Assembly (NCBI GenBank): GCA_951394045.1
Contig: OX595991.1
Location: 868,001 to 932,000 of the forward strand
Length of the DNA: 64,000 nt
Source: Nitzschia sp. DOCU1
Lineage: Eukaryota > Bacillariophyta > Bacillariophyceae > Bacillariales > Bacillariaceae
Reading direction: 5' to 3'
Shown here: positions 1 to 47,984 of the stretch, one piece after another
Layout of the letters: each line of letters begins with the position of its first letter
Position numbering within the stretch: the first letter of the stretch is position 1
Program-made: the position numbers and the translations under genes
Notes under the pieces: model-generated
The model's input: only the letters and a program-made list of their open reading frames with translations
The model's database searches: none
Told to the model about the DNA's origin: nothing

Positions 1-571
1 TGTAAATATGGTTGGCGCCGAGGGAGGAGCAACCGGTAGCAGTAGACGAGGAGAATTCGCCGCTGAATTTTCTCCTTCCCCAAGCCACAGATACAACGGA
101 GAAGGAGCGCTGCCGCTTGAGAAAGTGCGAATGTTCCATTGTGAAATATTTCTTCCCTCCCGTCGGACCAGAGAAGTAAGCGATGATATCATTTTTTGCT
201 GGCGTTCAGAAGAAGAATTCGCTTTAATGAGAAGTACTTCCTGCCTATAGGACTTTGATGTTGTGGCGATCACAAGAAACTTGGACTTCTCCACAAGATC
301 CTTCGTCCGCAATTCTTTGACAATGGACTGGTTCTTCCTTTTTATCGTTTGTCTCTGACCTTCATGTGCGGGGCGAAGGTTAATTGCTGTTGACGATCCT
401 CGAGATAGCTGGAGCGCGACGAAGGTATGCCTCCGCCAGTTCAATCGAAGAAGTCATCCCGCCAAAATTTGCCGCCGACGGACGAAAAGCGCCACTTTCG
501 CGCGCTCGGTCCCCGCTGGGTCGGTCGATCCCGCCATAAAATTCCCAAATGCAAAATCAGAAAAGGTGACA
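1..571. other. Upstream non-coding region of SDHAF4
   Basis: No convincing gene is seen. An open frame at 8-250 (+) and one starting at 427 (+) have no recognisable content. The second runs in another frame into the SDHAF4 first exon. The stretch probably holds the promoter and 5' UTR of the gene starting at 572. Confidence 0.4.
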
Positions 572-43175: not shown

Positions 43176-46100
43176 ATGAGGACGCCTTTCCTCAGAAAGG
43201 TTTCCAAGAAAGCATCATCGCATTATCATTGTGTTGAAAAACAGGAGCGGGAAGATGTCATTTTGAGAGAATCCTACTACAATGCGCGTGGTGGAAGTGG
43301 ATACCCCAAGGTCGAGGAAGATTCCAAGATTCTCTCTCGTCGTGCCGAAGATAACGCAAGAAAAAGTTTTCTTTTCCCAAAAGCCGGTCGATTTCTTAGT
43401 ACATCAACACGACGCAGTGCTGATGAAAAGGAATTCCCCAGAGATGGTGCTCCCCCCGGACCTACATTTGTTGATGTGTTGGAGTCAAGCCTTGACCGTC
43501 CTAGCACGAGCGTAGATCGTCACGCAGACCAAGAAGGATCACGACGCGTGTGTGCTCGTGCGCTAAGCAAGACTGAGGGTTCTGTTGAACGAAGGACTGC
43601 AGTAGGAGAGCGTCGCGATGACCCACCAGATACAATGTCCGTGACATCAATCTTCTACGATGAAAGCTTCGTTGGCGATCATTCCAGGCAAGGTGCACTC
43701 ACCGATGATGACGATGTAGACACATTATACTCAGCAGAATACCAGCAGTATCAGAATCCTCGTACGTCCCAAACCTTGCAAGAAATGGATGCTATTTTCC
43801 CAGACACACCGTCGTTGTGGACGGGTGTTAAATCCCAGGCGGACGAAAACCAGCCTGTTTCCGCGTCGCAATCCTTCGGCCTAGAGACAGGGCTTCTTTC
43901 TTTTGGCACTGAGGTTCTTGACGAGCTAGTAAGTACACAATCGGAGGAAGGGACGGAGATTTTCCAGGATAACCTGTGGGCATCAGGTGACGATGATGAG
44001 TTGAGTCAAAGTCACACTTACAATGACGAAAGCACTCTCGAAACAACACCGACTATGGAGCAAGAACTCGCGCACCAGAAGAATCCTTTTGACATGAGTC
44101 ATGATGAAGAAGACGACGACACTGGCGCTGTCTTTATGGATGACATTTTTCCACAGGATCCTTTGTGGACAGAAGGCCCGGACTCTAAAGGAGGAGCGCA
44201 CGAGTGCAAAGCCAACGAGAAAACACACAAAGGAACGACTGTAGAGACTCAAGCTGTGCAAAGTACCACCAAGAGCTCGTCCGAGTGTGTCATGTTTGTC
44301 CAGGCCGTCTTCCCAGCAGATCCATTTTGGTCCGAGTCGCCATGCGCTGATGGCTCTGGTACTAACGGCTGCGACATGGACAAGGCCGCCACTAAAAAGG
44401 AGGAAAAGCATCCTGAGTTTGTCTCAGCTGCCGTTTTCAAGACCAAAGTGGGAAGTGACACGACGAACGAAATTTTTCCTATGGATTTGTTGCCGTCGTC
44501 TGAGCCCTGTCAAGTTGCCCCAGCCTCTACCGACATCGATTTGATTCAATTTGATTGCAACGTTGAAAATACTTCAAGCTGTAATCGCCACCCATTGAAG
44601 CCATCAACTAGCGACGAGGACGAAAGCCTGTACACGACGGAAAGCAATACTGTGGACGAAGCTACAATTTCTCGGGATGACGCGGTCAACGAGACTGCTC
44701 CCATAGTTGAAACAAAGGCTGATAACTGCAACGTGAAATTGGTCCCTGGTTGTGTAAATTTGCACTCGGTACCTTCTTCTGGCTCTGCATCGGCAAAATC
44801 CACCAATCATGTGTCTGCCGCCGATGAATCGTCATCGACGGCGTCGGCAAACGCCAAATGCCCACATTGTATGGCACTAGAAGAAGAACTCATGGTCCTT
44901 CGAGCTCAACACAAGACGGATCTCTTGGAGCGCGATCTTCAAGATGAAGACCTCTTTCGCAACATGGAAATGATGAAAGAGTACATTGAGCTTCTGGATT
45001 CCGAATCCAGTTTGTACTCAAATGAATATGAATCGTTTTCAGATGACTATGAAGAAACTCAGCAGACCACCACTCGGAACAAAACAGAGCTTGAAGCGAA
45101 GCTTCGTATTTTTGACGAAGAGCTGGAGTGTCGAGCAAACAGCTTCAAAGCCATCGAAATGGAAGCTCGATTGAAGGATCTGGAAGCAGAAAACGCTAGA
45201 TGGAAGGCGGTGCTTGGCAAGGGCGAAGTTCAGATGGGCAAGGAAAACCAGGATCTAAAACATCGAGTAGAAGAATTGGAAGAAGAACGTTCCTTGCTTC
45301 TCACCAAGATCCAGTCGCAAGAGGCTGCTGTTGCCCTGATGGCGCAAGAGGAAGAGAGTTTGAGGCAACAATTGCAAAAGTTGGAGATTGAATTACAACG
45401 CGTGGTCTCCAAGAGCGTCTCTGAGCACAGTGATGACAACGAGAAGGCTTCAGAAAGTAGTACGACCGAAACGTGCAGGTCGGAAAAGGTCGAAGAGCCT
45501 ACTTGTAAGATCTCAAATGATGCTCAAAAGGATTTGATCCAAAAGCTAAGAGATGAGCTTGGCCAGAGCAATGATCTTTGTCTATCACAGGAAGAAACAA
45601 TTGCAAAACTTGTAGAGCAAGTGCAGCAATCTTTGTCAATGGGCGAAAATGTGAAATTTCAAGCTGCTGCCGAGGTCGCCAACGTGGGCGACGTTCGAGA
45701 TACCGATCAAGAATTGCAAGCCAAGATCCGAGCTTTGGAGATTGAAAGGAATCGCCTACGAACCAAATGTATCGCCCAAGGTCGTACTATTTCCAAGATG
45801 CAGAATGCGTCTGGATCTTTTCTAATGCCTCCTATTCACGAAGATCGGCAGTTTTCTTCCATCATCGCACCGGCGAGCGAAGAGAGTGCCGACGAAAGCG
45901 ATCATGCTATTTTTGAGGAAACAGAGGAGGACGTACAAGTTCTCAAACAAAGCGTGTCAGAGAAGAAGAAAAAGGCGGTTACAAGCCTTCGAGAATGCAG
46001 GAAGACTAGCGCCGAAGCCGCTCGTTCGAAAGAAGAGCGGGACGAACGCGATGCTCGCTTGCGGTACCTGGAAGATATCATCAGGAGCATGACAGACAGT

Positions 46101-46334
46101 GATAGCGATGGGTCAAGTGGTCGCGATGCACCTGATGGCGACGGTGCTGCTGTTATGGATGCTCCGTCCAGCGAAACCGTTAGTGATGATGACGACGACG
46201 CCCACGCAAGTCGAGCGGCTCGTTGGAAGGAGAAGATTCGCCGTCCAATTCAAGAGTTTACAGCAACAATCATGTTTGCTGGCAAGTCAAAGGATGACGA
46301 AGAGGTGGTACGCGGTGATGGAATCTTGTGCTAG
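43176..46334 (+). CDS. Large acidic coiled-coil protein with repeated FPxDPxW-type motifs
   Basis: 1052 aa, single exon, no recognised family. The N-terminal ~590 residues are acidic and disordered. They carry a short motif repeated with spacing: IFPDTPSLW (~205), IFPQDPLW (~325), VFPADPFW (~380) and a decayed IFPMDLLP (~434). From ~570 a CxxC-containing lead (CPHCMALEEELMVLRAQH) runs into long coiled coils (~575-910), with heptad Leu/Glu/Lys patterns such as LKHRVEELEEERSLLLTKI. The C-terminal ~150 residues are again charged, ending near a basic REIRRP-like stretch. The architecture suggests a scaffold or cytoskeleton/centrosome-type protein that uses the aromatic motifs as docking sites. 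This is inference only. Confidence 0.75.
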   Translation: MRTPFLRKVSKKASSHYHCVEKQEREDVILRESYYNARGGSGYPKVEEDSKILSRRAEDNARKSFLFPKAGRFLSTSTRRSADEKEFPRDGAPPGPTFVDVLESSLDRPSTSVDRHADQEGSRRVCARALSKTEGSVERRTAVGERRDDPPDTMSVTSIFYDESFVGDHSRQGALTDDDDVDTLYSAEYQQYQNPRTSQTLQEMDAIFPDTPSLWTGVKSQADENQPVSASQSFGLETGLLSFGTEVLDELVSTQSEEGTEIFQDNLWASGDDDELSQSHTYNDESTLETTPTMEQELAHQKNPFDMSHDEEDDDTGAVFMDDIFPQDPLWTEGPDSKGGAHECKANEKTHKGTTVETQAVQSTTKSSSECVMFVQAVFPADPFWSESPCADGSGTNGCDMDKAATKKEEKHPEFVSAAVFKTKVGSDTTNEIFPMDLLPSSEPCQVAPASTDIDLIQFDCNVENTSSCNRHPLKPSTSDEDESLYTTESNTVDEATISRDDAVNETAPIVETKADNCNVKLVPGCVNLHSVPSSGSASAKSTNHVSAADESSSTASANAKCPHCMALEEELMVLRAQHKTDLLERDLQDEDLFRNMEMMKEYIELLDSESSLYSNEYESFSDDYEETQQTTTRNKTELEAKLRIFDEELECRANSFKAIEMEARLKDLEAENARWKAVLGKGEVQMGKENQDLKHRVEELEEERSLLLTKIQSQEAAVALMAQEEESLRQQLQKLEIELQRVVSKSVSEHSDDNEKASESSTTETCRSEKVEEPTCKISNDAQKDLIQKLRDELGQSNDLCLSQEETIAKLVEQVQQSLSMGENVKFQAAAEVANVGDVRDTDQELQAKIRALEIERNRLRTKCIAQGRTISKMQNASGSFLMPPIHEDRQFSSIIAPASEESADESDHAIFEETEEDVQVLKQSVSEKKKKAVTSLRECRKTSAEAARSKEERDERDARLRYLEDIIRSMTDSDSDGSSGRDAPDGDGAAVMDAPSSETVSDDDDDAHASRAARWKEKIRRPIQEFTATIMFAGKSKDDEEVVRGDGILC

Positions 46335-46949: not shown

Positions 46950-47984
46950 ATGTCCAGAAGACGACAGGTCCTTTTGACGACCCCGCGGGGTAAAACAGCT
47001 ACAGTGAATTTTTCACCATCCTCCGTCGCAAACGCCGACGCGATATTGGAGTCGCTGTGCACGGCCGCTCGGGACCGAGAGAATGGCAACCACAAGAACA
47101 AGCGTTCTGTGGAAGATAATTCTCCTACTCGCAAGAAACAAAAGCGTTGTCACTGTCCTCTTCAAGTGTGGCATCAGGGTCGTCATGTCAGCGTTGACAC
47201 TCTGCGGCAAATGTTGTTGAGCGAGGACGCTGACTACTTTGCGGCATCGCCCATTCACTTGTCACTACGGGTTCCGATCGTCGGTGGTATTGATCGTCAA
47301 AATCGAGTTGGAAGTAAATTTGGAGGAGGCGGTGTGAGTAGTGCGCAGCAGTCGGAACGTGAACGCAAAGAACGCCTCAAACAATTGGCGTTGGAAAGCA
47401 TTGACTTGGCGAAAGATCCCTATTTGATGCGAAATCACCTTGGAACCTATGAGTGCAAACTTTGTTTGACGCTCCACACCAATGAAGCCAATTACTTGGC
47501 GCATACTCAAGGGAAGAAACATCAACAGGGCCTCGCTCGTCGTGCGCACATGGAAAAGCTGCGCGCCGAAAAAGAAGGGACCGCTTTGCCCACAGGACCG
47601 ACCACTGCAGCGACAGGACCCTCCGTCTCTGCCCCCAAGGTTCGCATTGGACGTCCTGCCTATCAAGTCTTTAAGAGTAGAGACGCCGAAACGCATCAGC
47701 GGTGTCTCTCCTTTGAATTGAGCTTTCCTGAAATTGAAGCTGACTTGCAACCGAGGCATCGATTCATGAGTGCCTTTGAACAACGTGTCGAAAGTCCTCC
47801 AGATCGTCGATATCAATATTTGCTCTTTGCGGCAGATCCATATGAGACTGTGGCATTTAAGATTCCCAACGAACCGATTGACAAGGAACCGGGGCGATTT
47901 GTCACTCACTGGAATGCCGATGAAAAGAAGTTTACCTTGACGCTCTATTTTGTCGAGTCAGACAGTACCAAGAATACAAATTAA
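46950..47984 (+). CDS. SF3A2: Ubiquitin-like domain fused to splicing factor 3A subunit 2 (SF3A2/Prp11)
   Basis: 344 aa, single exon. Residues ~115-344 are SF3A2: SERERKERLKQLALESIDLA, RNHLGTYECKLCLTLHTNEA, and a matrin-type zinc finger with C169, C172, H185 and H191. The conserved C-terminal domain follows (RYQYLLFAADPYETVAFKIP, FVTHWNADEKKFTL). SF3A2 is part of U2 snRNP and helps it bind the branch site. Residues ~5-113 are additional and read like ubiquitin. There is a first hairpin LLTTPRGKTATVNFSP and helix NADAILESL. A basic insert follows, then LQVWHQGRHVSVDT and a last strand IHLSLRVPIVGG. The Gly-Gly (112-113) falls directly before IDRQNRVGSKFGGGG, the equivalent of the normal SF3A2 start MDFQHRPGGK. 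I infer synthesis as a processed ubiquitin-like precursor, as known for Sde2. Confidence 0.9.
   Translation: MSRRRQVLLTTPRGKTATVNFSPSSVANADAILESLCTAARDRENGNHKNKRSVEDNSPTRKKQKRCHCPLQVWHQGRHVSVDTLRQMLLSEDADYFAASPIHLSLRVPIVGGIDRQNRVGSKFGGGGVSSAQQSERERKERLKQLALESIDLAKDPYLMRNHLGTYECKLCLTLHTNEANYLAHTQGKKHQQGLARRAHMEKLRAEKEGTALPTGPTTAATGPSVSAPKVRIGRPAYQVFKSRDAETHQRCLSFELSFPEIEADLQPRHRFMSAFEQRVESPPDRRYQYLLFAADPYETVAFKIPNEPIDKEPGRFVTHWNADEKKFTLTLYFVESDSTKNTN

What the first reader, a model, noticed from the sequence alone, without database searches (positions are those of the whole stretch)
46950..47984. Ubiquitin-like domain fused in frame to SF3A2, ending in Gly-Gly at the canonical SF3A2 start
Residues ~5-113 align by eye to ubiquitin: the first hairpin RGKTATVNFSP versus TGKTITLEVEP, the helix, then QVWHQGR versus LIFAGKQ, and the last strand LSLRVPIVGG versus LVLRLRGG. 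The Gly-Gly is followed at once by IDRQNRVGSK, equivalent to the normal N-terminus DFQHRPGGK. Sde2 is a known splicing factor activated by cleavage of a ubiquitin-like precursor. This gene suggests the same maturation for a core U2 snRNP subunit, with the free UBL (perhaps with its own role) as by-product. A basic ~30-residue insert sits inside the UBL.
Basis: partly seen in the sequence, partly recalled or inferred. Interest (0 to 1): 0.87.

Follow-up and report, generated by a model that had tools for sequence, protein, structure and literature searches.

The report
Ubiquitin-fused splicing factor SF3A2 in diatoms
In this diatom, and in many relatives, a core part of the RNA-splicing machine is encoded behind a worn-down copy of ubiquitin that ends in the classic Gly-Gly cutting site exactly where the splicing protein should begin, so the protein is probably made as a precursor that must be cut before it works.

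Summary
The 344-aa ORF at 46950-47984 is SF3A2 with a 113-residue N-terminal extension, and it is the only SF3A2 place found in this genome. The extension has ubiquitin's fold order in an AlphaFold2 model. Its family profile matches ubiquitin itself well above shuffles, but not the UBLs of SDE2, SF3A1 or FUBI. It is conserved: of 201 sequences compared, 195 carry an extension (176 of 80 residues or more) and 194 of these end in Gly-Gly directly before (I/M/V/T/A or Mx)DRQNR, the usual SF3A2 start. The UBL otherwise evolves fast (median 24% identity to the window's, against 80% for the core). On a core tree of 164 GG-bearing leaves, P3 to P6 change 12 to 48 times each, and the reconstructed ancestral tail is LRLRGG, ubiquitin's own. 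Best reading: ubiquitin was fused upstream of the SF3A2 start codon early in diatom history, eroded into a UBL, and is still cut off after Gly113. Human SF3A2's N-terminus reaches the 5' splice site in the spliceosome, so cutting is plausibly needed. Cleavage is inferred, not shown. Sde2 is an analogue, not the source. Ubiquitin-fusion precursors are a known kind; a core U2 snRNP subunit as partner was not found in the papers searched.

The parts
46950..47984 (+). UBL-SF3A2 precursor ORF, 344 aa plus stop, single exon
   Evidence: the only PF16835 place found in the 52 Mb genome
46950..47288 (+). Ubiquitin-like domain, residues 1-113, ending Gly112-Gly113
   Evidence: AlphaFold2 model; profile matches to ubiquitin; conserved in relatives
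46962..46979 (+). UBL strand 1 (residues 5-10)
46995..47012 (+). UBL strand 2 (residues 16-21)
47034..47081 (+). UBL main helix (residues 29-44)
47082..47162 (+). Basic insert between helix and strand 3 (residues 45-71), pLDDT under 50 at 52-67
47100..47147 (+). Bipartite NLS-like stretch KRSVEDNSPTRKKQKR (residues 51-66) inside the insert
   Evidence: sequence, 75 of 162 family UBLs match a loose bipartite pattern, 19.4 expected from shuffles
47163..47174 (+). UBL strand 3 (residues 72-75)
47253..47270 (+). UBL last strand (residues 102-107)
47283..47288 (+). Gly112-Gly113, predicted cleavage after Gly113
   Evidence: GG in 194 of 195 extension-bearing sequences, 175 of the 176 with 80 residues or more
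47289..47291 (+). Ile114 (ATT), predicted new N-terminus; probable site of the former ATG of SF3A2
   Evidence: codon; M, I, V or T (alone or Mx) in 192 of 194, window included
47289..47981 (+). Predicted mature SF3A2 (residues 114-344)
   Evidence: aligns to human SF3A2 from its residue 2
47448..47522 (+). zf-met zinc finger (residues 167-191)
47646..47933 (+). PF16835 SF3A2 domain (residues 233-328)

Best explanation
The gene encodes a precursor: a ubiquitin-derived domain joined in frame to SF3A2, a core subunit of the U2 snRNP. A ubiquitin unit was fused just upstream of the SF3A2 start codon early in diatom history and has since diverged, keeping the fold and the terminal Gly-Gly. Shown: the fusion, its predicted fold, the near-invariance of Gly-Gly, the exact boundary, and the resemblance to ubiquitin rather than the other UBLs tested. 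Inferred: a ubiquitin-fusion-processing protease (most likely a USP-type deubiquitinase) cuts after Gly113, releasing SF3A2 with its ancestral N-terminus (now Ile114-Asp-Arg-Gln) and a free UBL. Also inferred: cutting is needed because the SF3A2 N-terminus must thread into the spliceosome active site, and before that the UBL (with its NLS-like loop in many species) helps folding or nuclear delivery, as ubiquitin is thought to help eL40 and eS31.
For: Gly-Gly in 194 of 195 extension-bearing sequences out of 201 compared, and in 175 of 176 with 80 or more extension residues. On a core tree of 164 GG-bearing leaves P3, P4, P5 and P6 need 39, 32, 12 and 48 changes and the reconstructed root tail is LRLRGG, identical to ubiquitin's. 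Median identity to the window is 24% in the UBL and 80% in the core, yet GG in 68 of 68. The residue after GG is M, I, V, T or A, or Mx; M, I, V and T are Met or single-base neighbours of ATG, as expected of a former start codon. Fold. Profile search of PDB: 10 of 34 rows are SF3A2, PRP11 or zinc-finger chains, the other 24 ubiquitin-type entries. The genome has other GG-fusions by eye (polyubiquitin, Ub-eL40, Ub-eS31, Ub-NiSOD-like) and 26 USP-type matches, some being pieces of one gene. [quoted passage not shown] Transcript-derived relatives hold UBL and SF3A2 in one frame: P0178, named 'type:complete', and P0006, name cut at 'type:com'.
Against: No cleavage data. In the window the residue matching ubiquitin Arg72 is Pro and Arg74 is Val; over 181 sequences P5 is R in 126 and P in 41, P3 is R in 73, so a general deubiquitinase may read this tail poorly. 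Gly-Gly alone does not prove cutting: SF3A1's UBL has a C-terminal RGGR and is an RNA-binding domain (PMC12203917). One relative (P0154) lacks GG, and five listed proteins start at the junction, which could be gene-call artefacts or UBL-less forms. The ancestral residue after GG is not settled as Met: parsimony leaves V, M or I. Pfam recognises no ubiquitin domain in the window sequence.
Confidence: 0.83

Rival explanations
1. The UBL is kept on the mature SF3A2 as a permanent docking or RNA-binding domain of the U2 snRNP, like the C-terminal UBL of SF3A1; Gly-Gly is a flexible hinge.
For: SF3A1's UBL is an RNA-binding UBL whose C-terminal RGGR motif contacts U1 snRNA stem-loop 4 (PMC12203917, passages). 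This genome's SF3A1 also ends ...TRGGRR. Part of the diatom tails end RGG (73 of 181 have R at P3).
Against: R at P3 is not kept (39 changes; Val in the window) while GG is kept in 194 of 195. The UBL sequence is highly divergent, unlike a conserved RNA-binding surface. The profile does not match the SF3A1 UBL better than shuffles. The domain would sit just before a tail that enters the active site (PMC5835773).
Confidence: 0.1
2. The extension is translated but SF3A2 is mostly made from a downstream start (leaky scanning or another transcript), so the UBL form is a minor isoform.
For: Five of 201 sequences begin at M(V)DRQNR. In 47 of the 194 GG-bearing sequences a Met still stands at the SF3A2 start.
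Against: In the window there is no Met between residues 88 and 160, so no ATG start could give an intact SF3A2 N-terminus. The other 147 of 194 also lack Met there. Transcript-derived relatives P0006 and P0178 encode the whole fusion.
Confidence: 0.04
3. The extension is a domesticated SDE2-type UBL acquired from SDE2, processed by the same dedicated protease.
For: Same logic: N-terminal UBL, Gly-Gly, splicing factor (PMC9508853). One of 59 members gives a weak Sde2_N match, E=0.16.
Against: The profile scores this genome's SDE2 N-terminus at -0.7 bits (97 shuffles reach it) and ubiquitin at 25.4 (none). SDE2 still has its own extension in the same genome, and its GG is followed by K, here by I.
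Confidence: 0.03

Closest known systems
SDE2 (ubiquitin-fold-activated splicing regulator)
   Same: Splicing protein made with an N-terminal UBL ending Gly-Gly; in S. pombe cut by Ubp5 and Ubp15 before it enters the spliceosome (PMC9508853, passages).
   Different: SDE2 is a regulator of some introns with a conserved GG-K; SF3A2 is a core U2 snRNP subunit with I/M/V/T/A after GG. The UBLs show no specific similarity.
Ubiquitin-eL40 and ubiquitin-eS31 precursors
   Same: Ubiquitin fused before an RNP subunit; cis-chaperone role suggested; uncut ubiquitin obstructs assembly (PMC8122580, passages). Both fusions seen by eye in this genome.
   Different: There the fused unit is true ubiquitin and feeds the ubiquitin pool (recalled); here it is a diverged UBL, and the partner is spliceosomal.
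FUBI-eS30 (FAU)
   Same: Diverged UBL, C-terminal Gly-Gly, removed from an RNP subunit before assembly (PMC8122580).
   Different: Different partner; the SF3A2 UBL profile does not match FUBI above shuffles.
Ubiquitin-NiSOD and ubiquitin-membrane-protein fusions of algae
   Same: Algal ubiquitin gene fusions, diatoms included for NiSOD (PMC6332867, passages).
   Different: Not splicing-related; that paper's text has 0 occurrences of 'splicing' or 'SF3'.
SF3A1 C-terminal UBL
   Same: UBL in the same SF3a complex.
   Different: C-terminal, RNA-binding, not known to be cut off (recalled); not specifically similar.

Membership tests
SF3A2 / Prp11 | PF16835 domain above cut-off and matrin-type zinc finger | tested here: met
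   125.9 bits against cut-off 27, and zf-met 31.8 against 21.2
SF3A2 / Prp11 | Conserved N-terminal tail colinear with human SF3A2 | tested here: met
   window 115-334 aligns to human 2-212, E=3.8e-78
Ubiquitin fold (beta-grasp) | Ubiquitin order of strands and helix, structural match to ubiquitin-like proteins | tested here: met
Ubiquitin family by sequence (Pfam PF00240) | Score over the curated cut-off | tested here: not met
   PF00240 not listed for the window nor among the 13 families found in 59 relatives; the link appears only with a family profile
GG-processed UBL precursors | Gly-Gly at the boundary with the partner | tested here: met
   194 of 195
GG-processed UBL precursors | Cleavage after Gly-Gly in the cell | not testable with these tools
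   needs proteomics or blotting
GG-processed UBL precursors | Arg72/Arg74-like residues read by ubiquitin proteases (feature recalled; not required in all UBL precursors) | tested here: not met
   window has Pro and Val there; in the family P5 is R in 126 of 181 and P3 is R in 73 of 181
SDE2 | Sde2 N-terminal ubiquitin model PF13019 | tested here: inconclusive
   not listed for the window protein, weak in 1 of 59 relatives (E=0.16); but the model also misses this genome's own SDE2
SDE2 | GG followed by Lys | tested here: not met
   Ile in the window; no Lys among 194

The most novel reading that the evidence does not exclude
Diatoms license their U2 snRNP by proteolysis: every SF3A2 molecule is born capped by a decayed ubiquitin, and a deubiquitinase must uncap it so that its N-terminus can reach the 5' splice site. 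This would make a deubiquitinase a core, potentially regulated, splicing-assembly factor in a whole algal class, with a nuclear, diatom-specific free UBL as second product.
Probability: 0.4. Interest if true: 0.9.

Novelty: new variant of a known kind. Interest (0 to 1): 0.79.

Why it matters
It puts a core spliceosome subunit among the small set of proteins born behind a removable ubiquitin fold, in an ecologically major algal group. If cutting is required, assembly of a working U2 snRNP in diatoms depends on a protease step; Sde2 is the nearest case known to me, and it is a regulator, not a core subunit. It also gives an unusually clear record of ubiquitin decaying into a UBL while only the cutting site stays fixed, which asks directly what selection keeps such fusions.

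Tried and rejected
Chance similarity: rejected by shuffles. Origin from the UBLs of SDE2, SF3A1, NEDD8 or FUBI: no score clearly above shuffles (NEDD8 4.5 bits, reached by 4 shuffles). Ubiquitin evolves very slowly, so a sister UBL that diverged could be missed by this test. A second, unfused SF3A2 in the genome: none found (six-frame search, introns ignored).

USP7-type deubiquitinase: family PF12436 rang nowhere, not in the controls either, so this says nothing about absence. VIA-align on the window model listed only rows that fall on the SF3A2 part; the UBL was barely tested there, and the compact relative P0121, also modelled, is what gave the clear UBL match. pTM is low (0.38 window, 0.48 P0121): domain placement means nothing.

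Taxonomic reach: one search listed 120 of 3060 hits, one search listed 120 of 291, one search listed 45 of 45. Searches were seeded with UBL-bearing proteins, so neither universality in diatoms nor absence elsewhere is shown. Whether other stramenopiles lack the UBL was not settled. The species of the window was not identified; 'diatom' rests on these relatives. The bacterial promoter scan is irrelevant here.

Tree limits: the leaf labels require GG, so 0 changes at P1 and P2 there is by construction and is not used as evidence. The six leaves dropped were human and the five proteins that start at the junction; the one extension without GG, P0154, was too short for the tree. Deep branches have weak support.

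Literature: searches found 0 papers; others (16 of 16 listed; 25 of 78; 15 of 20; 10 of 16; 12 of 41) listed none whose title or shown abstract reports a UBL on SF3A2. Beyond listings I saw passages only, of PMC9508853, PMC6332867, PMC8122580, PMC5835773, PMC12203917 and PMC9505925. Subscription papers and preprints are mostly not covered.

Full report
What is there. The ORF at 46950-47984 (+) encodes 344 residues in one exon. In-frame stops precede it, and no Met lies between residues 88 and 160. Residues 114-344 are SF3A2: PF16835 and zf-met score over their cut-offs, and human SF3A2 aligns from its residue 2 at Asp115. It is the only PF16835 place found in the 52 Mb genome. Residues 1-113 are extra.

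It comes closest to ubiquitin itself. The UBL-family profile gives this genome's ubiquitin 25.4 bits; none of 1000 shuffles reached it (983 reported, maximum 4.7). NEDD8 (4.5 bits, 4 shuffles reach it), FUBI and the genome's own SDE2 and SF3A1 UBLs are at or near shuffle level. The window UBL alone against ubiquitin scores SW 45, and 0 of 500 shuffles reach that. The slow evolution of ubiquitin may favour it in such tests.

The boundary is conserved. Three protein searches gave 200 proteins. With the window, 201 were examined: 195 have an extension, 194 of them end in GG directly before one or two residues and then D(R/L)QNR; one lacks GG (P0154); five start at the junction; one has no junction motif. 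Of the 195, 176 extensions have 80 or more residues (175 with GG), 14 have 30-79 and 5 fewer, the short ones probably cut gene models. In a 68-sequence alignment the median identity to the window is 24% in the UBL and 80% in the core, yet both glycines are kept in 68 of 68; the next UBL column, G77, in 65. On a FastTree core tree rooted with human, 164 labelled leaves, all with GG, need 39, 32, 12 and 48 changes at P3, P4, P5 and P6. The root is reconstructed as L-R-L-R before GG, the tail of ubiquitin. The absence of changes at the glycines on this tree is by construction of the labels; the evidence for their constancy is the count 194 of 195. Deep branches have weak support, and the sequences are related and not a random sample.

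The residue after GG is I 114, M 36, V 16, T 15, A 2, or MV 5, MA 5, MT 1. M, I, V and T are Met or single-base neighbours of ATG; parsimony leaves the root as V, M or I. In the window it is ATT. This fits a fusion made just upstream of the old SF3A2 start codon, which then no longer had to be ATG.

Setting in the genome. SDE2 is separate and has its own extension ending RGG-KGGFG; the Pfam SDE2 domain starts at residue 81, at that point. SF3A1 keeps a C-terminal tail ending TRGGRR. Polyubiquitin, ubiquitin-eL40, ubiquitin-eS31 and a ubiquitin-NiSOD-like fusion are present (partner names by eye), and 26 USP-type matches, some of them pieces of one gene. Proteases that cut after GG therefore presumably exist here.

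How it most likely works. A protease cuts after Gly113 and frees SF3A2 with its old N-terminus. [quoted passage not shown] that part was modelled from yeast Prp11 (PMC5835773, passages). A folded UBL just ahead of that tail would probably be in the way, so cutting is plausibly required; that is inference. Precedents are Sde2, whose processing is required before it works (PMC9508853), and ubiquitin-eL40 and ubiquitin-eS31, where ubiquitin is suggested to act as a chaperone in cis and obstructs assembly if uncut (PMC8122580). The insert in the UBL carries a bipartite NLS-like stretch in the window; a loose pattern matches 75 of 162 UBLs, window included, 19.4 expected, so nuclear delivery before cutting is a possible extra role.

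Against. No cleavage has been seen. The tail positions that match ubiquitin Arg72 and Arg74 are Pro and Val in the window; in the family R stands there in 126 and 73 of 181. SF3A1 shows that a UBL with a GG at its end can serve as an RNA-binding domain (PMC12203917).

Verdict. It is a new variant of a known kind, the ubiquitin-fusion precursor, with a core spliceosome subunit as partner. In the open papers searched it was not found (listings).

Noticed in passing
G000 contigs C4 (2941311-2946596), C5 (3216123-3220097), C9 (337424-341095), C11 (203894-206302), C14 (346342-353157), C16 (1025880-1027068); loci L012, L021, L022, L027: Several long open frames (589 to 2732 aa) with many diverged ubiquitin-like repeats; in the stretches read (four of the six) most units are not joined by Gly-Gly. 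They look like giant decayed polyubiquitin-like genes; function unknown.
   Followed up: partly
L032:1261-2973 (G000:C7 near 1608452): The SDE2 protein of this genome carries a SPRY domain between the SDE2 domain and the SDE2 C-terminal domain.
   Followed up: partly
L007 (G000:C10:1097396-1097611): Ubiquitin fused to a protein beginning HCQVPCG, which looks like the algal ubiquitin-NiSOD fusion (assignment by eye, fusion type known from PMC6332867).
   Followed up: no
L008 (G000:C3:1872695-1873138): Two ubiquitin-like units behind a signal-peptide-like N-terminus and followed by a C-terminal part of about 130 aa of unknown kind; possibly a periplastid-targeted ubiquitin.
   Followed up: no
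window 43176-46334 (+): Upstream neighbour: a 1052-aa ORF, rich in acidic and coiled-coil-like stretches by eye, with no Pfam family at E 0.01.
   Followed up: partly
P0082, P0090, P0103, P0105, P0114: Five relatives whose predicted proteins start exactly at M(V)DRQNR; the four that can be seen in the printed tree sit among UBL-bearing relatives. Gene-call artefacts, or lineages that lost the UBL.
   Followed up: no
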